DNA of 64,000 nucleotides from Nigrospora sphaerica (lineage: Eukaryota; Ascomycota; Sordariomycetes; Amphisphaeriales; Apiosporaceae): positions 4,154,001 through 4,218,000 of the forward strand of contig JAGVVL010000013.1 of NCBI GenBank assembly GCA_018287875.1. Direction: 5' to 3'. Below are positions 57-64,000 of this stretch, in pieces. The notes beneath the pieces are model-generated. The model did not search any database, was not told where the DNA came from, and saw only the letters and a program-made list of their open reading frames with translations. A program made the translations under genes and the position numbers. How positions within the stretch are numbered: the first letter of the stretch is position 1; every line of letters begins with the position of its first letter.

Positions 57-350
57 GTATTAGAACAGACAAACACTAGGTGTAGTGCCTGGTGGAAAGA
101 CGCGGTCGTGAGGTCGATCCCTAATAATGTGATAGACATGCCCTCGATTTAGGACGTGCAAGTCCTTGATCAAGTGTACATCTATCACCCAAGTAAAAGT
201 GAGGTCCAACTAGGACAATAACTGGGACAAAAACGGTTATTGAGTGATGGTCTCAAAAGATAAAAGAAGTGAACATGTTTTGTTGTGTCTTGTCTCTACG
301 GTGGAAGCTGGACGGCTACTTATAGGTCTGCAAGTCCTTGATCGATTCTG
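57..350. repeat. Dispersed ~290-bp repeat, copy 1 (LTR-like)
   Basis: This stretch is nearly identical to 54069-54354, where the same sequence lies at the 3' end of Gypsy-4. The copy starts TATTAGAACAG, which could be a RIPed TGTTAGAACAG LTR start. Homology fades after the shared CAAGTCCTTGATC near 345. A solo LTR of the Gypsy-4 family is the simplest reading. Just inside the start there are also tRNA-like A-box and B-box-like strings (near 83-95 and 112-122), so a SINE-like origin is a weaker alternative. No clear target-site duplication was found. Confidence 0.6.
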
Positions 351-49849: not shown

Positions 49850-52800
49850 GGGAATCCACCTTTATAACTCTCGGACTTAAGACTTTTACTTAACCTAGGG
49901 CACTACCTGTACCTAAGGTTTGACAGCAACAATTTTACAGCCTTCTTAGAAGACTGGGAGAGATATACTTAGCGGTTCTGTTTCTCCGAAATCGATAAGA
50001 TTATAGAGCTGATAACTTATTATATCGGTTAAGGAACACTCTTCTAGATCTATTTAGCAATTAATGAGTATACTACCTGGCTAGATTTTAAGTAGCGCCT
50101 CTTTTTTAACTTTAAAATAGGGGACCTCTTATATTAGCTTTCCTTAAACGCGAAGTTATCGGAACTCAAATCTAGACTTAAGCTATCAGACCATTAAGAG
50201 ATATACAACTACCTTATCGAGTATAAGCAAGTCGCCAATACTTTGAAGGCTATATCCGCAGTATAAGGAGGTGTTACTAAACTAACACGAGAAAGTTTAA
50301 TTAAGCGTTTACACCTGGATATCCAGCATATGCTATTTAAGAAGAACTGACTTGCAGGATATAAAAACACCTTTAAGGACATCTCGGACTGGTTAATTAA
50401 GGAGCGCATATTTAGCAACACCCTTAATACTAATGCGGTTAAAATGCATGCTGCAAAGATAATACCAGATAAGAAGAACCTCGTGTAAAAAGAGAGGACC
50501 GAATGAATAACTGAGAACAACACGCGCGTGGACGCTAAGATAATCGACAATGCAATCGACAAGATAACTAAGAATTTCGAAAGTCTCGGGGTTAACCGGA
50601 TTTAAGCTTTAATCGACGAAAGACTAAAGCAGTTATAGCCGCCTCACTTGTAAGACAACTCACAGACCTATCCCTATGTTAGCAATATTCAGGCAAAAGA
50701 GATAACACTAGGCGTCGTCGATTAAGACTCCTTTTGACGTGGGGCACCTGGATTAGGGTTTTCCTCCTATAAGAGAGGTGGCCGAGGCGGTAGAGGCTCT
50801 TACAACCGTATCCTCCCGGATAACAGCGTCTAGTTGCATAACACGTACGGCCTTAAAGACTGCTATGCTTGCAGTGAGCCCAGCTATAGGAGCAATCGAT
50901 GCCCTATGTTAGTATACTGCACCGAGCAAGGCTTCCTACACTGGGATGCTGATACCTAGAGATACCGAGCAGACAGACAAGGAGAAAGCCACTGGCTAGA
51001 CAAGTCGATCTTAGAAGACTGCCTTCGCCGAAAGAAACCGGCTATTTGGTTATACCTAATGGATATCTTCTTTAACAGACTAGGAAAATATTAGCAGTAA
51101 GCGCACGTTAAGAACAAACTATTTAAGCAAGACCTAATCACTTAAGAGGATATAAACAAATTCGCAGCCTATTATAGAAAGAGATAAATCGTTAATTAAG
51201 GATAAGCACAACCAGCTATAACAACCGTTAACTTAGTTAAGACCTGCGAAACAACATATTAACTAGATATTGACTTCGAATTCATATACGTTAAGTACAA
51301 CTCGGATAGTCGAGAGATCCTGCGTGTTATAGAAAGGCAAGCCACGCTACTATAAATCGCCTCGATCGAGGAAGTTCTAAATAAAGAAATAGTAGTTATT
51401 ATAGTGAACGCGAGAGAAAAGAGAGTAAGATTAGAAGATAGTAGGTACGCCTTAAAGCATGCCGCTCAGCTAATAAACAGCCAGGTAAAAGGAGATAACG
51501 ACGCGACTACCTTACAACTCAAGAAAAAGCTTAATCAAAATAATGTCGACAAATAGACTAAGCGAATCCTCTAGGAATTTAGCGATAAGAAGTTTACAGT
51601 CACCTAGTTAGACTTGATTACTGAAGTCCCTAATTTTAGCTAAGGACTGCTAAAAGTGGCGACACACATAGGGCTTCTTAAGACCCCGACTGCATTACTA
51701 TAAAGACTAGTAGAGACCTTAAGAACAGCATTACAATTAAAGGATCAGTAAGGTTTACTAATAGAGCACACTTAGCTAATAAACTACAATAAGAGTGGAG
51801 AACACAGAATATTACAAAGCGCACTAATTAAGACTCCCTATATACTATTAACGTAACCGACCTCTTTATAAGACCAGATAAGATTAGAGCAGCGAGATCC
51901 TTAGGACGCCTTCTAGTGAGAGTCGGACCCAACGGCGATAAGACTTTAATACGAGGTCTACTAAACACCGGAGCCGCGACCAATATCATCGTGGACACCT
52001 ACTGTAAGAAGAACAACCTGCCTTTTATAGCATCTAGCACAGTCCTAAGAGAATAGATAGTAAATTCCGTACCCACTGAGTTAATAGGGACCCTAACTGA
52101 CTATCTTTGGATTAGGAGACGCAAGATCCGGACTTCCTTTTAAGTTATTAAGGCTGAGAATAGCAGTCATAATATAATTCTCAGCTTACCTTTTATCTGC
52201 AATAATCGTGCGGTTATATTTTATAACGTACCCGAGGGCACTCCACCGATAGCCCAGCTTATTATAGGCAATGTAAAGCTCCATGTTCTAGTGATCCCCA
52301 ATTGGAAGAGCGCTGATTAAGGGAATGCAACCAAAGGTGGCTCCTTAAAAGGCGCGTTACTAAAGAAGACAGGCGGCTTAGTAGCGATTACAGGCTGGCA
52401 AAACTGTCTCTCTCGGCCATATGCTATACACTGGCAGAATTAGTTGTCAACACGATCACAGCTGTAGAATCACCTGATTAAGATCTTCCACGACTAGGAA
52501 AGAATAAGACGATCGTTAACAAGATCTCCGATAACGGGCTCCTACTCCTGCTTCAGGGGCTAAGAGATAAGTGCATAGGGGACGAGGAGGCCATAGCCAG
52601 GAACGAGGAGATGCCCTCACCCCCTTAGCCTAGACACAATTCATAACAGCAAGAGTGTCACTTAAGCCGCGCCTATAAGAATAGAACAACCGAATAGATT
52701 AACACTATATATAAAACAGTCGCCTAAAAAGTGCAGCCAGTGGACAACTACCCTTCGGATAGATTAATCCTAGCTAAATCGACGTTGTAGAAATAAAAGG

Positions 52801-53233
52801 CCCTGGAAGAAATCGCAGGCAAGCTTATACTTAAGCCGCTAGATAGCTTAATAAAGAACATGCAGTTAAGGTTCACTACAATAGGACTTAAAGAGCAACT
52901 AATAAATAAGCAATAAGTGGAAATCCTTAATTAGCTGAAACCTTTAGAAATAACACCGGAAGAAACGGCTATTTTTAAGCAAATCCTTCAGAACTAAGAA
53001 GCATACTTAGCTTGCGACACTATAAATATAGGCTATATTCGGCTAGAGATCTCAACCCTATACAAAATCCGCATAGTACCGTATATTACATAGTAAGCTA
53101 AGAGTGTACCAATCCTAAGGGCGCTGATACTAAAGGTAATTAAGGTCCTTAAGAAACGCCTTACTAAAGGATAGCTCGAGGAAGGCCACAGCCCCTATAG
53201 GAATAGCTGGTTCGTAGTCGTAAAGAAGGACGG
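49850..53233 (+). mobile_element. Gypsy-3, degraded relative of Gypsy-4 (gag to RT start)
   Basis: Gag reads FDSNNFTAFLEDWERYT near 49920-49970, with a Cys-rich knuckle CYACSEPSYRSNRC near 50860-50905. A run similar to Gypsy-4 follows (GKY(stop)QQAHVKNKLF, TEDINKF-like) near 51080-51170. Protease reads LLNTGAATNIIVDTY near 51955-52005, then ILSLPFICNNRAVIFYNV. The RT start reads KKRLTKG, SPYRNSWFVVVKKDG near 53145-53230 and stops at LTR family H. The same order occurs in Gypsy-4 on the opposite strand. It is full of TAG/TAA stops. Confidence 0.75.
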
Positions 53234-53753
53234 TGTAACGAAGCGCTATACCTAAGTACTGCGTGACGTAGGGTTTGTACAATCAGGGACAGAGAGCGTC
53301 TGCCTGCTTGAACACTGGTCGCTGGGTAACTGATAAACTGAGGTGCTTGACTGGGGAGTAGATGCGTGTAACTGATCTCACAATAGGTCGTTAGGCGTTA
53401 GCCCATCTATAGGTAAGATAGATGCTTAGATTGATCACTGAGGTAATGACTGTCTATGTAGGAAATCCTTCTGACTTATATACCAAGTCATTCCCTCACT
53501 GATACCTTGGATCACCTTCCGTTCCTGAGGCGATCACCTTTGTGGCTGTCGTGATCCTCGTGCGGATCACGGTCGCCAAGCCTTGCGATCACCCTGCCCC
53601 ACTTGTGATCGGTCACGTGACCTTGTGGCCGGGTTGAGGCTCTGACAGGGTGGCGGTGCATTCCTCCCTTACTTCATGCGGGGTTGTGCAAGCACGGCCA
53701 TAAGAGGTAAGGCGTTCTGTGTTGGGCGTTGGTCCTGCCGTTGGTCCGTAACA
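53234..53753 (+). repeat. LTR of family H, second copy
   Basis: Starts TGTAACGAAGCGC and ends CCGTAACA, inverted relative to 1649-2436 and without the 213-bp insertion. It abuts the Gypsy-3 RT frame on the left (GACGG) and unrelated sequence on the right (AATTC), so there is no target duplication. It contains many GTGATC/GATCAC strings. Confidence 0.75.
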
Positions 53754-54068
53754 AATTCTGAGGCTTTATCTTCTATCCACCTTTAAGTACGTGGTTCTTA
53801 CTTATCACGCTTCTAGTCTTACTTATAAGTGCTTTATATTAATCAGGTTCTTAAATATCTTACTATTATAACTATGCTTTTAATGAAGTATCGGTATATC
53901 GAATACATTTTCGATTGGTAGTTGTTCGAAGCTAGTTAGGCAGCGCTAATTATCAAGATACTTGCCTATACGAAAGGTAATCCGCAGCTTCCTTCTATTT
54001 ATGTTAACATCCTTAAAGGCAGTCTATATAGTTCTGTTATTTCGAAACTCTTAGGGCGGCTTAAGCTA
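53754..54068. other. AT-rich spacer, nothing recognised
   Basis: Decayed AT-rich sequence between family-H LTR and the Gypsy-4 3' repeat. No motif could be read. Confidence 0.3.
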
Positions 54069-54354
54069 TTAGAACAGACAAACACTAGGTGTAGTGCCTG
54101 GTGGAAAGACGCGGTCGTGAGGTCGATCCCTGATAATGTGATAGACATGCCCTCGATTTAGGACGTGCAAGTCCTTGATCAAGGGTATGTCTATCACCCA
54201 AGTAAAAGTGAGGTCCAACTGGGACAAAAACTGGGACAAAACGGTTACGAGTGATGGTCTCAAAAGATAAAAGGAAGTGAACATGTCTTGTTGTTGTCTT
54301 ATCTCTACGGTGGAAGCTGGACGGCTACTTATAGGTGCAAGTCCTTGATCAGAC
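54069..54354 (-). repeat. ~290-bp repeat, copy 2: probable 3' LTR of Gypsy-4
   Basis: Nearly identical to 57-350. It lies about 160 bp beyond the stop of gene X, the last gene of the minus-strand Gypsy-4, where its 3' LTR is expected. The other LTR would be beyond the right edge. It contains CAAGTCCTTGATCAAGG twice in variant form. The exact end toward 54.4 kb is unclear. Confidence 0.55.
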
Positions 54355-54516
54355 CCCTGGTATTGGGTACCTATGTACCCTAGCCCCGTCTTAACCGTCC
54401 CCCAGTCGGGAAGCGATCGTACCGAATGTCAAAATGAAAAAGCATCACAACTAAAATACAGCGTGTGTGAGAGCGACCAGACTATGATGAAGGGGCTAGT
54501 CTGTGCAAGGCCTTGA

Positions 54517-57300
54517 TCAGTCTGATACCCCGTAGATGTCCTCCTCAATCTCCTCAGGCTCGTTCCCTGCGACCATTCCTGCGCGACGGGCAGCGCGCTC
54601 TTGTCGGCCTCTATAGACCGGCAAGTTCTGTCGCCAAGCGTCCTGTAAGGCGGTCATGCGAAGTCGCATGTCGTTCCATCCGCGCCAGTCCGCAGGCGCC
54701 GTGGGAATGGGACGGGTCAGAGCGTCCTCTCTGGTATCCCCAACCCTTGCGTAGCTTAAGCGACCTCCTTGATCAAGGGCTTGCGCCCGTTATCCTCTTG
54801 TCATTCCCAGGTAGGAACCGTCAATGTCAGAGACAAGGTCTTGCCCTGTGCTGCTTAGGTCGTACATGTATGTCGGCATAGGAGGCTGCTTATGGTGCTT
54901 GCTCTTAGTTAATGTACCGACCTGAGGGTACTCGCTCTTTGTTAAGTCCACGTCCGGATCCGTGGGGTTGTCCTGCGCAGGCTCCTCGGTATGCGCTGCT
55001 TATGCGGGCTCTGGGTTACTGGCGGCATGTCTCTCCGACCTGGTGGATCGACGGGTCTGTCGTCAGCCTCTGTCTGCTGGACCTCCTGGCGTGGGTCGCT
55101 CTTGAACAGCGGCTTCCTCAGGGATTGTGGCCGGGATCTGGCCTCTAGAAGTCGTTCTCGTTAATCCGCTGTTAGATGGGCCTGCTGTTGGCTCGTTGCC
55201 AGTGTCGCCAGGTCTCTGTGAAGAGCTTGACCTAGGGGTAGCAGCCGTACGCGTAAGCGTGGGAGTCGTCAATGTCATATTCGAGATACCTCTGTGCGTT
55301 AATTCTCTAGCTGAGGGCAGCGCTATGCGACCACCAGATGGCTGACCTGACGCCTGGCCTGTGGACGATCCCCTCTGTCTGTTGGGCGGTGTGGATGGTG
55401 CTTATCTCTGATCAGGCCGTGCTCTAGCGGCAGGCGTTGATTCTTGGGAGGCTGGTCTCGATGCTGGTCGTGATGATTGTCTTGTTGACGTCTGTGTGGA
55501 CGGTGTATCCGGATCAGTGTTCACTGCGGCCCAGGTCCGCTGCATGTCCACATTCAACCTAACTAACGCTGCCAGTTCGTTGACCATGACATAGTCTAAT
55601 TAGTTCTCCACCCCGCGCAGCTTGCTGGAGATGTACACGAAGTTGCTGTCCTTATTAATGTTGTACACTATCTAGATAACTGATAGAGCCATGTAGGCGT
55701 GGCGCCAGCGTTGCTGTCGGTTACAATAGCAGGGCGTCTAGCTGATCTTGAGGTTCGGGAACCTGTCGGCAAGGTTGGCTCTGCTTAAAGCCTGTCGAAA
55801 CAACTCTCCTGTGTTTTCGGCAACGACCTGGTTATCTTTGTCGCTAAACGTGTACACCATAGCACGTTATAGTCCTGGTGTAAAGATCACCAGCGGCCAA
55901 GGACCATAGTCCTCATCGTTATGCGCTGCTCTGTAGATGCAGATGTAGCCGTCCGCGTAGGTCGTTCGCAATCGTGCTTGTATATCGTTGTTCAGGTCGT
56001 TTGGGGCGTTGGGCTTGTCGTCAAGCGCCGACGGTGTGTCTTCCGTTAAACACCACCTGAGCGTCGTGTTGATTATCGATGTGAGGGCGTCAAAGTCCGC
56101 TCCTAATATGGTCTTGCTTTCGGCGTACCTGAAGATGGTACGAAGGACAGCGTCCTGAGTTCCTGTCTTCCAGTTCTTCTGGTTCGTGATGGGCAAGGGT
56201 CTTGTTAATGACTCGCGCATGGTCTTAATCGGGGTTGACTGTAGTGAGTCCCAGCTGCGTACTAGTGTGTTGTCCCTTGTGGTGCTTTCCCACTTTGGCA
56301 TGGGTACCGAGGATCTCTCGCGTCTAATTACTCTCCCTAGGTTCTCCAGTTCGTCCCAGTGGAGTAAGCTGATCCTTAATCCGGGCTTGGTTTCTATAGA
56401 CAAGTACTTAGGCGACTCTTCTAAGGGTAGGAGGTTATCTTTATCGGTTCCATAGTTATCGATACCGAAACGGAAGTTGCAGTTCTTCTGTATGACCTGG
56501 TATATTCGTCGTATGGCAGCAGTGAAGTTGCGTTGATTAACGACTTCCCTGACGACCTCCTTAATCAATGTACCTTGAGAGAGGTGCCAGGCTAGCAGGA
56601 TCATGAAGTGGTTGTCTGCCTAGCATGCACTCGCGTGGATGCCCTTGTAAATGTGGACTGCTTTCCCCTAGTTGCCTTCACGTCTCCCGTCTAGGATGCG
56701 CTCCCAGACTACTCGGCCGGCGTGGTACCTATAGTCGAGGTACTAGTCGTCTGTTATTTTGAAAGGGGAGAAAACGTGGAGCCGATTCTTATTGTAGACG
56801 CACAGCAGGTGGTTCTCTCTGTCGCTGTCTGGGTGCTTCGCGTTGATCATAATAGCAAAGTTGTCGCACAGTCCTTTCTCCCAGTTAGACCTGGCTATGG
56901 GTGAGATGTGCTCTTTCCATGTGCTGTGGTTTATGTTAATCGTGCCAAGGAAGACCGTTCTTTTGTTCGCATTCTATAACAGCGCCAGGATCTTCTCAGT
57001 GTCTGGGTAACTGACTGGTCTTTTTAGTACGAACTAATATACTGCTTCCCAGATCGCTGCTAAGTATGCAGTTGGTTCCGCTTGGTCGCGGGTCACTTTC
57101 TCGGCCTTGGTAGCGACTGCCGTGTCCGGAAGCTTTGTGATCAAGGGAATACCGTCCTTACTGCGTTCGAATGGATAGCTGATCGGGAGGTTGTCGTTAG
57201 TCTCGACGCTCCAGAGGTCAGCGTTATAATCCTTCGCAATACTCTCTTGTAGTGCCACTAGCGCTGCCTTCTTCCCTTAGAAGACGTTGAAGTCTTCCAT
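54517..57300 (-). pseudogene. Gene X: large accessory ORF of Gypsy-4, unknown function
   Basis: One frame of 928 codons runs from ATG at 57300 to TGA at 54517 without indels. About fourteen premature stops, nearly all TAG or TAA at likely Trp/Gln positions, interrupt it. Residues about 120-260 contain VFLGTININHSTWKEH, ENHLLCVYNKNRLHVFSPF and GIHASAC followed by a hydrophobic helix (MILLAWHL). The order His, acidic/aromatic strand, Cys-helix is reminiscent of C48 (Ulp1-type) cysteine proteases, but a Gly after the Cys is absent and the match is weak. Residues about 560-750 are Ser/Thr/Pro-rich and disordered. The C-terminus is charged (WNDMRLRMTALQDAWRQNL, EEIEEDIYGVSD). It lies downstream of integrase and shares an upstream region of about 500 bp with antisense gene Y. 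Confidence 0.6.
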
Positions 57301-57798
57301 CTGGCCGAAATAGACGTCTTCTATAGTGGAAAGTCTTAATCAAGACAGGAAGGTGATCAAGGTAGAATAGGGTTCCTTAACAGTGTGCAGTTTGGGGGTA
57401 CGAGTAGTGTGTGATGTTCTCTGGTGACCAGAGGTGCGGAGGATGTTGTTGGAGGGAAGAGGAGTGCTTGCGGGAGCAGAGGAGCGATGTCAGATACTTA
57501 TCCTTGGAGGCTTTTAGCTAGGAGACTCCAGGTCGCTTTGTGACTTGTAAAGAGGGCGCGTGACTGCTTTCGGTGAGTTATTGATTGCGGTATTGAATGG
57601 CTATCCGATATTGTTAGTCACTTGTTATCATTTAGCGTTAGGAATGATTGCGGAGTCTCGACTTAACTAGGCTGTATCCGTCTTTGTTCTTCTTTTGTTC
57701 TTTATATCATTACGCCTCTGGTCTCTCTTCGTCCCCTAGAATAACACACACACTTATGTCTTTATTGTCTTGATTAACATCTTCCTTAAGTTGTCGCC
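57301..57798. promoter_or_regulatory. Shared upstream region of genes X and Y
   Basis: About 500 bp between the divergent starts of gene X (minus) and gene Y (plus). It contains TTGATCAAG-like strings (TCTTAATCAAGA near 57335, GTGATCAAGG near 57350) and a T-rich run with TATATCA near 57700. It may drive both genes; this is positional inference. Confidence 0.35.
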
Positions 57799-58696
57799 AT
57801 GTCTTCCCAGCATCTGGAGCGGTACCGGCTGCCTCTCTTATCGCAGTCGCAGCGGTAGGGGTTTCGCGACGGGGCTGTGTACACTGTGCGCGCCAACGAA
57901 GCAATCCATTTGATGCCGGCTGTTAAGGAAGGCGACGAAATAGTTGAACTGCATCTCGACAACTTGTCGCAGGTGCGCAAGTTCTTCTTGGAGCACTCGG
58001 AGTTTGGCAAGGGTAGGCGCGATAAGAATTCGAAGTCGATTTCGTATACTCATTTGGCGGTAAGTCGCTTCCCTCTAACCAGTGTGCTTGGCCCCGTTCT
58101 GACCGGTGGAATATCTTAATCAGATCCTGGGCTATCTGACTATCACTACTATGCCCTCTAATGAGTACACCTATTTGCAGTGGGTGTTCGACAGAGCGTT
58201 GTTCGAGGGGAAGGATAATTAGGCTGTCCAGAACATCTTGGGGTGGTACCGCCCTAATCAACAGCTTCCACCCATCTTTGTGGAGGCAAACCGTGGTGGT
58301 CCCTTCGGCTGGGTTATCGGCAAGTTGCTATCCCGAGGAGAGACAGCAGCTGCTGTCCTGGTCTAGGCGTATGGGAAAGCAAACCCCATGCCTTGCGAAC
58401 ATTGCGAGTCCCTGCTGCGGGATGCTGATACAGAGGACACGCGCGGCATGGCGCCATTCTTCGGTTGTGTTTCTCTCCCTCAGTATCATGCGAGTTATAG
58501 TAACTGCTTGATAGTTGGACGCAATACCTCGTGCAGCTGGTGTATCCATGGGAAGATGCTTGGAGATCTTCAGAAGAGGGGAAAGACGAAGCTCGGTCTG
58601 TTGTCTGCTGATACTAAGGGCGGCTTGGTTATCAAGGGAAAGGAACTGGAAAAGATAGGGAGGGATTCCTTTGCTGTCCAGGCTTTATGGAACTGA
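57799..58696 (+). pseudogene. Gene Y: antisense Cys-rich gene with one intron
   Basis: Exon 1 is 57799-58059 (87 codons), the intron 58060-58123 (64 nt, GTAAGT...TAATCAG, with CTAACC and CTGACC branch-like strings) and exon 2 58124-58696. The frame is right only with the intron removed, giving 277 codons before TGA with three in-frame TAG codons. The C-terminal half has MPCEHCESLL, then GMAPFFGCVSLP, YSNCLIVG and SCSWCIH, a Cys pattern like the fungal DUF3716-type domain of unknown function. Mid-protein IFVEANRGGPFGWVIGKLLS is unfamiliar. It runs opposite to pol and gene X, between them. A zinc-binding role is likely from Cys spacing; anything more is a guess. Confidence 0.6.
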
Positions 58697-58841
58697 GATA
58701 GGGGGAAAGGTGTACGCTGCGCCTGTGTGTACCCTTAATTAAGGCATGCGCGTTCGGAGTCTGGTCTTTCTTTAGTCTTTATAGGCCAGCTTCATGCTGA
58801 GGCCATAATTCATATCCAATCGTCTTCTTCATCGTCGCTTT

Positions 58842-61800
58842 TCAAGTTAAGATATGCTGCTGTGCTGGACAGCAGTCATCAGGTAACGAGTGGAATGTTC
58901 TGATCGGCGCTTTAAAGCGCAGGATCTGAACTGAATGTCGTCGTAAGGGTACAACACGTCCCCCAGAACAGTAGAAAGGAAAACGGGAAATCGGTGAAAC
59001 TGAGGAACTATACAGCGAAAGTACCACGACTATCCCTTTTAAACAAGGTCGTTGGGAGGCCTAAAAGTACTCGGGATACTTAACGTAGCCTTCCCGTGTG
59101 CCTAAAGGGATCTCAACTTGGATTCTTAACTGGGTCGGCGGTAGTCCTGAACTCGTGGCTTCATCGATGCTGATTTCTTGCGGAGGTTTCTTCAGTGGTC
59201 TGCCCCTTCTTTTCGGGGGTGGTTTGTCTTAATCAGGACCAGGTATAGGTGCTTGAAGGTCCTCCTGACTCCATCTATCCTTGTCGGTATCAAGCGGTTC
59301 CCAGGTTCCGTCGGGGTCCTTCCTAAAGGCCTTCAGCCTGTCGCCGTGAAAGACTCCTCGGATAGGGACTCCTGTGACGTCTTGGAGCTTGAAACGGTTG
59401 TGAGGCAACGCTTCGACGATCCTGTATGGTCCCATCCATCGGTACTGGAGCTTCCGGTCGTTGGACATGTCGATGTGGCGGACGTAGTCGTAAGCAAGGA
59501 CCAGATGCTCAGTCGTCAGCGGTGAACTTCGTAACTTGGCCTTGTTGCGTTGATCAACGTCTTACGCACGTCGTTTTCTCTAAGACGCGATCGCTTGGCA
59601 AGTCGCTTCGATATCCGCAGGTCGGTTCTCTAGCATTCGCACCCTTCTGGTAATCAGCTCTTCTTAGCTTATATCTTCGTTCCAGTTCATAATCCGCCAC
59701 GTCGGAATGCTTAATTCGAAGGGCATCAAGGGTTCCCTTCCGTATAGGAGTCGGTATAAGGACATGCCAAAGTACCGGACCACGGTCCTGTCGGCCCACA
59801 CAACTAGGGGTAGTAACGCCACCCAGTTCTTGCCAGACCCGTCGGTTATCTTTATTAGCGACTTAGCAATGCTCTTATGCCCGTTCTCGATTAAGCCTTG
59901 AGTCTTCGAACTGTAGGCGGGTCCTGGTGTGACTGTGAAGCCTAACTTCTTGCCAGCCTTGATGACCTCTCCTTTGTTTTCTAGGCCGTTGTCTACTTTA
60001 AGGCGCTAGAAGCAGCCATGCTGGTAAATAATGCGTGACTTGATGAACCGCACGATGGTTGCCGAGTTGATCTTCTTTAATACCATGGCCTTAAGGTAGC
60101 CTGATGCTTCGCAGCGCGCTTCGACAGTTGCGGTGAATCCTTAGTAAGCTGGTATGTACTGTACGTCGAGTACCCAGGTCTGAAGGATATCTGTGGGTTC
60201 CGTCCAGAGTTGCGCATCCATTGGTCGCTAATTAGAGGCTTTCGCACACTGGAGGCACTCTAACTGCCACTGCTTAACATCGGTGTATATATTGGCCCAC
60301 CAGTATAAGTTGGTAATCCTCTTATAGGTCGCGTCTCGACCTTTGTGTCCGAGATCCTCGTGTGCCTGGGCGAAGATATTCTTCTTCTAATTAAGGCTTT
60401 CCATAGCTCTGCGTGGTGGTGACTTAGCTGTGGCCTTACGAAACATCACTCCTTCGTGGATAAAGAAGCGGGTGGCTTCTGTCTTGAATGTAGTGACTAC
60501 TCTCCTTAGGTGGGGAGTGGTAGGGTCTTGTAATTGGTCTGGCAGCTGTAATATCTCTAGGTAGTGGCGATACTCGGCTAGCTTCGTCTGTGGGTTCTGT
60601 TAATCAGGCTCGGTTGTGTTGATCTTAGCGTCAATGAAGTCGTCAATGTCCCCTTCGTTCGCGTCGTCGATATCGTCGGATAGTCCTCTGCCCTTGCGTG
60701 ATAATGCGTCCGCGATGACGTTCTTCTTGCCTGGTAAGTGGTGTACTTCGAAAGCGAACAGCTTAATATATGCCAGCCACCTTGTCAGTGGTGCTGATGG
60801 CAGTAGGTTCATTGAACAGTCATTAAGCTGGTCTCGCAGCGTCCTAGCGTCCGTTTCCAGTCTGAACTCGGCGCCAAAGAGGTACAGTTGTAGGCGCCGT
60901 AAGGCTCTGACGATGGCGAGATACTCCTGCTTACCAGAGTCGTACTTCTTCTCGGCGTCGTTCCAATATCCGGACTCGAAGCGAATTAGCCGGTGCTCAT
61001 CGTTAATCAGTTGGCTAAGTTCAGCTCCCTAGCCTGTACCAGATACGTCGGTCCTGAGGTAGAACTGATAGGTACCGTACTCTGGTTTTCGAAGCGCAAC
61101 TGCGTTTGCGATCTCGTTCTTCAAGGTATTGAGTGCTTGATCTTAATCAGGACCCTAGGTGAAGGGCGCTCCTTTCCGTAGTAGCTCTATTAAAGGTTGC
61201 GATTTCATGGCATAGTGGTTGATCCATGCTCTAAAGCATCCTGCCATACCGAGGAAGCTCCTTACTTCACTGACGTCTCTGCAGGCGTTCCACTCGCAGA
61301 TCTTCATAACCTTCCTCTCGGGTGGCTTGCGGCTATCGGAACCGCACATATAGCCAACGATTTCGATCTAGCGCTGGCACCATTGGGACTTGGCGCCGTT
61401 AATGGAAACTCCGGCGAGCTCCATGTTGAATAGCACGGCATCCAGGTTCTCTAGATGTTCCAGCATAAAGCGTCGGATGCCAGGGAAGCGCTCTTGATCA
61501 GTATAACGCTCCGTGGGTCCTTTAACTGGGACGTCGTCGAAGAAGAAATCGGCCTTTTCCTTGGGAATGTCAAATAAGATCCTAGACATCACTCGAATGA
61601 AGTGACCTGGTGAATTGGTGAATCCTTGCGGCAATGTCGTCTATCGTAGGACTCTAAGCGGTGTGGAGAACGCTGTTATGTCTCTCGAGGTCTCTGCGAG
61701 TGCGCAGTGGTCGTATCCTGAGAATAAGTCGAGTCCGGTGAGTATCTAACAGTTTGCGAAGGGCTTAGCGAACTCGTCGCTACCTCTAGGCAGGAGCGCG

Positions 61801-64000
61801 TCTTTAATCGTGACACTATTAAGGCGTGTAGCTGAATTGATAAGGCGTACGCTCCCGTCCTTTTTCGCAACGACGAACCAGCTGTTGCGGTATAGTCCGT
61901 GGCATTCCTTAAGCCAACCTCTCTCGAGTCGTTTCTTCAGGGCCTCAATTGCTTTTGGTAGTAGCGCTCCAAGGATTGGGACGTTCTTTGCTTACTATGC
62001 CATATGCGGTACCGTCCGAATATCGTATAGGGGTGAGATCTCGTATCGGATTTAGCCTATCTCCATTGGGTCCCATGCTAGACAGGCTTCCCGATTCTGT
62101 AAGATCTGCTTTAGGACGGCCGTTTCTTAAGGTGTGAGCTCTGAGGTCTTAAGCTGATCAAGGACTTCCGCTTATCTGTCGTCGGTTAACCTTTGTCCTA
62201 ATGGCATAGTTGTGAAGCGTGGTTACATATTCTTTATTAGCCCGTCCTTTGTTCTCGTAGGCATCTCGATTCCTGCCAGCACTGCACCTTTCCAAGACGT
62301 GGAGCCTCCTGGAATACTACCATCTGAAGGGTAGTCGTCGACGGGTTGGACCTTTTGCGCCACTGTTTTGTACATGGTGTTGACTTAACTCGAGATAGCG
62401 TGTTATCGGACCTCCTGTCCTCGCTGGAGAGATGAGGGCAGTCCTGATCTGCGGCTCGCAGCCCTATCGTCCCCCATGACCTTATCTCGAAGCGACCGTA
62501 AAAAGTCCAGTAGGGTATCGTCCGAGAATCCCAGGAGGACATTGTCCTTATGCTCATTGTATAGTGGAGACTCTTAATCAGTGCTATCCGCCGCTCTAAT
62601 GACGTTCAGGGAGAATGCTGTTAGTGCGATCTTCTTAGAATCCTTATTAGGGTGGTGCAGCCTTTGGATGCTACTGCGTCGGCTAACAAGCGCAGTAGCC
62701 TGGCTTTTTCCGTTGCTGTGGCCATTAATCGAGACTTTCTATTAGTCTGCTTCTCGTCTGGTGTGATGGGGACTCTGATCTTTGTGTTGCCAATTAAGAA
62801 TTCCGCTGAGGGCTTCGTATCCACAAGAACGTTGTAGATAAGCGTAGCACGTGTCTTTGATAGGAAGGGCAAGCTAAGGATCATATCGTGGCCTGTTGTC
62901 TCTACGCGCACCATTGCAAAGTTGTCCTTCACCTTACAGTCGGCGAGCCACACGTAATCCTCTAATATGCCAACGGTGTTAGTGGGCTTGTCGGTCTCCG
63001 ACCATCCTTTGATTGGTATTGTTCCGTCGACCACGTACAGCGAGTTCTGTTCGTAATAGCGCGACGAGATAATGTTGAGCGCCGCCCTTGTGTCGACCAG
63101 GGCCTAAAGGATGCTCTCATCTCCGGTTGGTCCGACTCTCACTGGGATCCTTCCTAAGGGCTTTGTCCCGACTGACATGCTCGCAATCCTCTCGATAAGC
63201 CGCGCGTCCTTCTAATCAGGGGTTCGGTCGAGTACCGCAGGTAAGCCCTCCATACTGGCTTCTGGTTGTTTAGTGCTTGTCCGTACTAAGTTGACCGTCC
63301 CGGGGTAAATACTTTCGTCGTCCTTAGGTCTCGTCCTTATGCTCCTGATAACGCGCTTAGTTGCTATCTCGAGATTAACGACCTCCTCAATTCCTTGTTG
63401 TCTTTCGACGCTCTCCTTTGCTAACTCGAGCAATCCGAGACCAGCGGCTGGGACTTCACTTATCAGGTCCAGCAGGCTGATCGCGACGTTCTTGTCGCCG
63501 ACAGTTCGCTGCAGTCGTTCCTTCCAGCGCTTGACATCTTAATCAGTGGTCTGCGCAGATAGTCTCATCTCTGGCCCCATCGACTGGCTGGGCTCAGCGT
63601 CCTTCATAACGTATGAACCATCGTTCTTATGTATACGCTTCTCGGCAGCGTTCACAGCCGTCTCTATATCCGAGTCCTGGATCTCTTCGACTGTCGCGAC
63701 TCGGGCGATCGGTTCCTGCTTGGCTTGTACGACCCGGAACCCATCGTTGTCATAGCCAGTGACTTCGTACTGGAAATCTTGCCCAGGTGCGGTAGCGACC
63801 GTGAGGTTGTCGCAGAGTTCGATAGTGGTGATGGAGGGGGTCTTTACGCCTTGATCAACGATGCGCCCATGCTGCTGGCTCTCTTCGGCTTTGTGTATGG
63901 CGACGTCCTCTTGGGTGATCTGGCTGGGCGTCGTGAGGAACAGCATATTCCTAGCAATCGCCTGTTGTCTATACGTCCCCCTCCGATTGACGAAAATGTC
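58842..64000 (-). pseudogene. Gypsy-4 pol (partial gag end, protease, RT, RNase H, integrase)
   Basis: The frame enters from the right edge. A gag/linker region (63946-63212) leads to protease ALVDTRAALNIIS (Gly changed to Arg) near 63100 and ILSLPFLSKTRATLIYNV near 62880. A frameshift near 62660 separates it from RT: LYRNSWFVVAKKDGSVRLIN near 61880, TTLPQGFTNSPGHFIRVM near 61620 and the catalytic FFFDDVPV near 61540. RNase H ends with FEVHHLPGKKNVIADALSRKG near 60750. Integrase has the zinc-binding region near 60350, CEASGYLKAMVLKKI near 60100 and AYSSKTQGLIENGHK near 59910. The C-terminal SH3-like YRWMGPYRIVEALPHNRFKL has no chromodomain. Stops are TAA/TAG. This lineage differs from the two chromoviruses here. 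Confidence 0.8.

What the first reader, a model, noticed from the sequence alone, without database searches (positions are those of the whole stretch)
54069..64000. Gypsy-like element carrying two non-retroviral genes downstream of integrase
After the integrase C-terminus there is no LTR. Instead there is a divergent pair: gene Y (plus strand, Cys-rich, intron) and gene X (minus strand, 928 codons in one frame), then about 160 bp and a repeat found elsewhere in the window that fits the 3' LTR. Both genes show the same TAG/TAA decay as pol, so all decayed together. Extra ORFs in Gypsy elements are usually env-like; these do not look like env (no signal or transmembrane segments seen). This would be a cargo-bearing or coat-lacking retroelement lineage not familiar to me.
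Basis: partly seen in the sequence, partly recalled or inferred. Interest (0 to 1): 0.78.

Follow-up and report, generated by a model that had tools for sequence, protein, structure and literature searches.

The report
Fungal retrotransposon with two extra genes
This is a decayed 12-kb jumping element in what looks like a fungal genome; besides its copying machinery it carries two old genes of unknown function that are not virus-coat genes, and its family appears to use an unusually long stretch of a host tRNA to start copying itself.

Summary
Observation confirmed and extended. The left LTR (54070-54393) has its partner outside the window (window-frame 66055-66379) with the same 4 bp (CTAT) outside both: one inserted 12.3-kb Ty3/Gypsy element, minus orientation. 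X (937 codons, sense) and Y (spliced, antisense, DUF3716) lie inside it, head to head, between integrase and 3' LTR. All 16 near-identical pol copies found in the genome carry both (X partly deleted in one). Divergent sister families keep the same pair (X 27-32%, Y about 43-47% identical). Un-RIPed X relics give dN/dS 0.03-0.11, so X was under purifying selection. No membrane or signal segment was seen, so env-like is unlikely. The stop codons are RIP. But one sister family lacks the pair, and a variant with most of X and Y's first exon deleted has spread, so the pair looks accessory, not essential. [quoted passage not shown] Unlooked for: families A, B, C and E show a 50-nt primer-binding site matching spliced, CCA-ended tRNA-Asn up to residue 27, against the usual 18 nt.

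The parts
54066..54069 (.). 4-bp target duplication CTAT; the second copy is at L001 5380-5383, outside the window
54070..54393 (-). 3' LTR (324 bp; TG..TA ends in element sense in other copies; TG is TA here)
54517..57324 (-). gene X, in sense with pol; start codon and 14 codons lost to RIP-type changes in this copy
   Evidence: open 937-codon frame in copy L002
57325..57798 (.). 474-bp stretch between the divergent genes X and Y; presumed two-way promoter (inferred)
57799..58059 (+). gene Y exon 1 (antisense to pol)
58060..58123 (+). gene Y intron, 64 nt, GT..AG, not a multiple of 3
58124..58696 (+). gene Y exon 2 with DUF3716 (PF12511)
   Evidence: 22.7 bits, E 9.6e-5, cut-off 22, on the open piece 58367-58693
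59061..60962 (-). RNase H end and integrase part of pol
   Evidence: 95% to L002; Pfam on the L002 counterpart
60963..64000 (-). further pol (reverse transcriptase, protease) running out of the window; gag and 5' LTR lie beyond 64000
   Evidence: for 60400-61600; on copy L035; 5' LTR

Best explanation
A Ty3/Gypsy LTR retrotransposon family whose lineage has long carried two accessory genes between integrase and 3' LTR. X is read in sense, without intron, as a protein of about 105 kDa: a conserved N-terminal part of about 590 residues, a basic low-complexity linker and a conserved C-terminal part. Y is read from the other strand as a spliced mRNA; because its intron is antisense to the genomic RNA it survives retrotransposition. 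Shown: position, linkage to pol, conservation between families, selection on X, RIP decay, survival of related elements without the pair. Inferred: transcription of both genes from the 474-bp stretch between them; Y as a zinc-binding protein (invariant Cys/His residues); both acting in trans as regulators of the element in its host (expression, nuclear steps or escape from silencing), useful but not needed for transposition.
For: Partner LTRs and target duplication enclose X and Y. 16 of 16 near-identical pol copies found carry both (in one, C10:851145, X is partly deleted). Of 14 further X places counted, 7 have Y head to head within 750 bp and 2 are the deletion variant. X families align over their length. 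dN/dS of un-RIPed X relics against L002: 0.096, 0.026, 0.112. Y exon 2 L041 v L040 0.176, v L042 0.219, v L043 0.285. The intron sits at the same place in families A and B, and in C with its GT changed. Family E has an open RNase H-integrase stretch (0 stops in 624 codons), no X/Y hit and identical LTRs. L040 and L042 share one deletion junction and have LTR pairs 100% and 97% identical.
Against: No transcript was seen; no known domain in X. RIPed pairs give weaker ratios (X 0.42 and 0.35). Where X/Y was gained or lost is unsure: the pol tree puts E beside B (97/99), but its root rests on one very long row. Of the 14 X places, 3 have no Y near and 2 have Y 13-14 kb off. L041 has Y but no X hit.
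Confidence: 0.6

Rival explanations
1. Recent cargo: host genes picked up by transduction, of no use to the element.
For: DUF3716 also occurs at three loci not listed with this pol; some related elements lack the pair.
Against: The pair is shared by divergent families in one arrangement and X was under selection; X has no match in this genome away from element sequence. Ancient capture of a DUF3716 domain by Y stays possible.
Confidence: 0.1
2. X-Y is a separate mobile element nested in the Gypsy element.
For: It is a compact divergent pair.
Against: The repeat scan of 52500-64000 lists no repeat pair bracketing 54.5-58.7 kb; same place relative to pol in all 16 copies and in sister families.
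Confidence: 0.04
3. X is an env-like coat gene that has lost its hydrophobic parts.
For: It sits after integrase, in sense, where env sits.
Against: Highest 19-residue hydropathy is 1.17 in X (0.54 near its start) and 0.79 in Y.
Confidence: 0.03
4. The matter is antisense RNA: Y transcription regulates the element through double-stranded RNA, its protein being incidental (an idea discussed for plant antisense ORFs in PMC7264820, passages).
For: Y is antisense and its 3' end faces pol.
Against: Y protein is conserved between families and in database proteins at 52-60% identity over 61-62%, keeps its intron position and gives dN/dS 0.18-0.29.
Confidence: 0.15

Closest known systems
Boty-like Ty3/Gypsy elements of Botrytis with antisense gene brtn (Zhao et al. 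2011, not seen; cited in PMC7264820, PMC8365987, PMC4227169, passages)
   Same: Fungal Gypsy element with an extra antisense gene between pol and 3' LTR
   Different: Boty gag-pol is described with a chromodomain and a 5-bp duplication (PMC4227169 passage); none found here at E up to 1 and 4-bp duplication; no second, sense gene is mentioned in what I saw; homology of Y with BRTN not testable here
Plant Retand, Grande and RIRE2 elements with antisense ORFs (PMC11963269 abstract; PMC7264820 passages)
   Same: Gypsy elements with a long pol-3'LTR stretch carrying antisense ORFs in most copies
   Different: Retand ORFs mostly bear TRP28; Y bears DUF3716; here a sense partner X is paired with it
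Bdelloid rotifer LTR elements with diverse ORF3 (PMC5408684, abstract)
   Same: Non-env third genes downstream of pol
   Different: Those are esterase or exonuclease genes; X has no known relative
Lentiviral primer over-extension sequence (PMC13191261, passages)
   Same: Match to the primer tRNA running on past the 18-nt PBS
   Different: There it allows for stops a few residues beyond m1A58; here the match runs to residue 27, 50 nt

Membership tests
Ty3/Gypsy LTR retrotransposon | two LTRs and a target duplication | tested here: met
   window pair with CTAT; matching 4 bp in 7 of 9 pairs examined, 2 of them on shared flanks; L003/L015 and L007/L023 do not match
Ty3/Gypsy LTR retrotransposon | gag, protease, RT, RNase H, integrase in that order | tested here: met
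   copy L002/L035: RVT_1 57.8 bits, RNase H, H2C2 58 bits; protease 8.3e-5, just under its cut-off; CCHC knuckle in gag only E 0.041
Chromovirus branch of Gypsy | chromodomain after integrase | tested here: not met
   no chromodomain at E up to 1 in L002 and L036 pol ends or up to 0.1 in L041; a diverged one could be missed. The window copy itself was not scanned (one search failed on stops)
Env-bearing Gypsy | third gene with signal and membrane segments | tested here: not met
   hydropathy
Boty-like element with brtn | antisense gene between pol and 3' LTR | tested here: met
   Y at 57799-58696
Boty-like element with brtn | antisense gene homologous to BRTN | not testable with these tools
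   BRTN sequence not to hand
Retand | TRP28 domain in the antisense ORF | tested here: not met
   DUF3716 is the only Pfam family in P0002 (Y of L041) at E up to 0.1
DUF3716 (PF12511) | score above the family's cut-off of 22 bits | tested here: met
   22.7 bits for the window piece, 29.9 for Y of L041

The most novel reading that the evidence does not exclude
This Gypsy lineage has a 50-nt primer-binding site: plus-strand synthesis copies the spliced, CCA-ended tRNA-Asn primer through T-arm and anticodon arm and stops at G26 (a dimethylated residue in fungal tRNAs, recalled), not at m1A58; or the primer is a 3' tRNA fragment that begins at residue 27. With its old sense/antisense accessory pair it would be a Gypsy lineage with its own replication step and its own host-control genes.
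Probability: 0.5. Interest if true: 0.72.

Novelty: new variant of a known kind. Interest (0 to 1): 0.55.

Why it matters
It adds a fungal Gypsy lineage with a selected sense-antisense pair of extra genes, one with a domain of unknown function, and offers natural with/without comparisons (families A, B, C against E and a deletion variant) for asking what extra retrotransposon genes do. If the 50-nt tRNA match is renewed by copying, the accepted rule that the plus-strand stop is set by m1A58 becomes testable in a new system.

Tried and rejected
X relatives: protein database (4645 and 7313 candidates, none at the threshold), Pfam (three chance-level families), NCBIfam, PDB profile (two hits at E 0.34 and 2.4 in the low-complexity linker), viral contigs. 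Y in viral contigs: none; in PDB: none. The protein database gave only 3 hits for Y and may hold little fungal sequence, so X's lack of hits is weak evidence. A Ulp1-like protease fold for X, considered by eye, was dropped: the residues I lined up are not conserved in A1. Structure models were poor (mean pLDDT 37.1 and 42.4); no fold search was run. The right flank of the element does not continue the Y piece of its left flank: unexplained. Left out of the 9 duplication pairs: L009/L020 and L010/L021 (tandem arrays with altered LTR ends), L011/L022 (truncated LTR), L012 (no partner in L024).

Full report
The window is G000:C5:4154001-4218000 of an unnamed 51.6-Mb genome in 33 contigs. RIP and a short intron point to a filamentous ascomycete (inference; no call names the organism).

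Ends of the element. The stretch right of the window holds the partner LTR at L001 5055-5379, window-frame 66055-66379. The LTR is 324-325 bp and runs to 54393; in element sense it starts TGAGACGGGG and ends TGTTCTA. CTAT stands directly outside both LTRs. Of 9 LTR pairs examined 7 have a matching 4-bp duplication (ATAG, ATAT, GTAT or GTAA in element sense); L005 and L006 share flanks and are probably one insertion; L003/L015 and L007/L023 do not match. So pol, Y, X and the LTR belong to one inserted unit of 12,310 bp in minus orientation.

Association. Of 40 pol matches scored (44 candidates) 16 are 90% or more identical. Y lies at 16 places and X at 16, 15 over the whole probe and one over 180 of 701 bases. 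They pair place by place; at C5:636242 an insert splits pol and X lies 12.7 kb off. Copies at C7 and C8 stand in tandem.

State of copies. In L002 X is open over 937 codons. L002 against six copies gives 70-514 transitions and 0-31 transversions, the excess being C to T at CpA in the other copy.

Sister families. 24 further pol places are 69-74% identical. Twelve loci were searched with X, Y and pol pieces: L043 (family C) has X over 962 aligned columns (28%) and Y (43%); L040 and L042 (B) have Y exon 2 and the C-terminal part of X only; L041 (B) has an open 876-codon pol stretch and open Y but no X hit, and no 3' LTR was found in it; L044 has a weak X piece; L036-L039 (E), L045 and L046 have neither; L051 is the split family-A copy and shows pol only. 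Genome-wide protein searches add places. One search took 14 X places outside family A: 7 with Y head to head within 750 bp, 2 the deletion variant, 2 with Y 13-14 kb off, 3 with none near (one at a contig end). Dropped before that count: the relics L065 and L066, the fragments C7:103100 and C7:73184, and L044's piece. Y without an X hit: C13:659910 (L041) and C33:4542253. In family E two copies were checked for LTRs: 303 and 302 bases identical to the 5' LTR of one, 260 bp after the integrase match. The pol tree puts E, B and L044 together (97/99), A apart, others unresolved; the outgroup row is very long, so loss of X/Y in E is favoured, not shown.

Selection. Two un-RIPed relics keep X pieces at dS 0.65-1.16 from L002 with dN/dS 0.096 (163 codons), 0.026 (86) and 0.112 (82). 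L065 is an LTR and the start of the PBS fused to X 775-937; L066 holds X 852-937 and then X 1-82. RIPed pairs give 0.42 and 0.35, and L065 v L066 0.38 on few changes; L002 v L043 is saturated.

Proteins. Y carries DUF3716. Ten places in the genome match the family, seven of them in these elements. Three database proteins match Y: P0003 (97%; the intron is read through as in L041), P0004 (60%), P0005 (52%), each over 61-62% of the query. C132, H134, C135, C156, H163, C169 and C178 (P0003 numbers) are invariant in the five rows of A2. X has no relative in the libraries searched. X's linker 591-800 has pI 11.1 and 53% P, S, T, Q, G.

Primer-binding site. Directly after the 5' LTR stands a stretch whose reverse complement is the 3' end of tRNA-Asn(GUU) with CCA added and intron removed. 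In L032 (family E) 50 of 50 bases match; the other LTR copies score 42-48 of 50 without gaps, lowest where the C run is two shorter. Four tRNA gene places with a 13-18-nt intron were found, and 26 intronless places at up to one mismatch, control 0; those of the 26 that lie in fetched loci sit after an LTR. The sequence after base 50 differs between families A, B, C and E, so the match ends at one tRNA position, residue 27. The window itself holds no such site, its 5' LTR being outside. One further match of 41 of 50, L050, has no LTR known to me beside it. ARAGORN named the gene loci tRNA-Asn, -Thr, -Ser and unknown and Rfam passed only L047; the Asn identity rests on the spliced cloverleaf with anticodon GTT, which I read by eye. 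That m1A58 normally sets the plus-strand stop and is present in tRNA-Asn primers is from PMC13191261 (passages); m2,2G26 in fungal tRNA-Asn and its effect on RT are recalled. Whether the 50 nt are renewed by copying or only inherited is not shown.

Papers. Passages: PMC7264820, PMC8365987, PMC4227169, PMC13191261. Abstract and outline: PMC5408684, PMC11963269. DUF3716 occurs in 0 papers of the library. For a long PBS, searches listed nothing on such a site in LTR elements except the lentiviral over-extension sequence; most subscription papers are not held.

Mechanism. Shown: anatomy, linkage, conservation, selection on X, and that related elements without the pair have spread. Inferred: a two-way promoter, splicing of Y, zinc binding and a regulatory or nuclear role. 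The intron fits: an antisense intron survives retrotransposition, and the sense gene X has none.

Noticed in passing
L032 156-205; likewise L001, L014-L019, L022, L023, L025-L031, L033, L039, L052, L054-L056: Primer-binding site of 50 nt matching spliced, CCA-ended tRNA-Asn up to residue 27, with different sequence following it in families A, B, C and E.
   Followed up: partly
window 53754-54069 and L001 5380-5700: The element's left flank is a decayed Y gene of sister family B (64% to Y of L041); the right flank does not continue it although the 4-bp duplication matches.
   Followed up: partly
window 61-343: A second, partial LTR of the same family (94.7%).
   Followed up: no
G000:C7:3742005-3782921 and C8:31470-45282: Family-A copies in tandem about 13.5 kb apart, with identical stretches between units (L009 v L020 805 of 805) and altered LTR ends.
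   Followed up: no
L065 302-1224 and L066 513-2025: Un-RIPed rearranged relics of the element: LTR fused to X's C-terminal part, and X pieces out of order with LTR pieces.
   Followed up: partly
L040 4919-5572 and L042 3351-4004: Two copies share one deletion junction joining Y to X's C-terminal part: a deletion variant that has spread.
   Followed up: yes
L062, L063, L064: DUF3716 reading frames at loci not listed with this pol; function unknown.
   Followed up: partly
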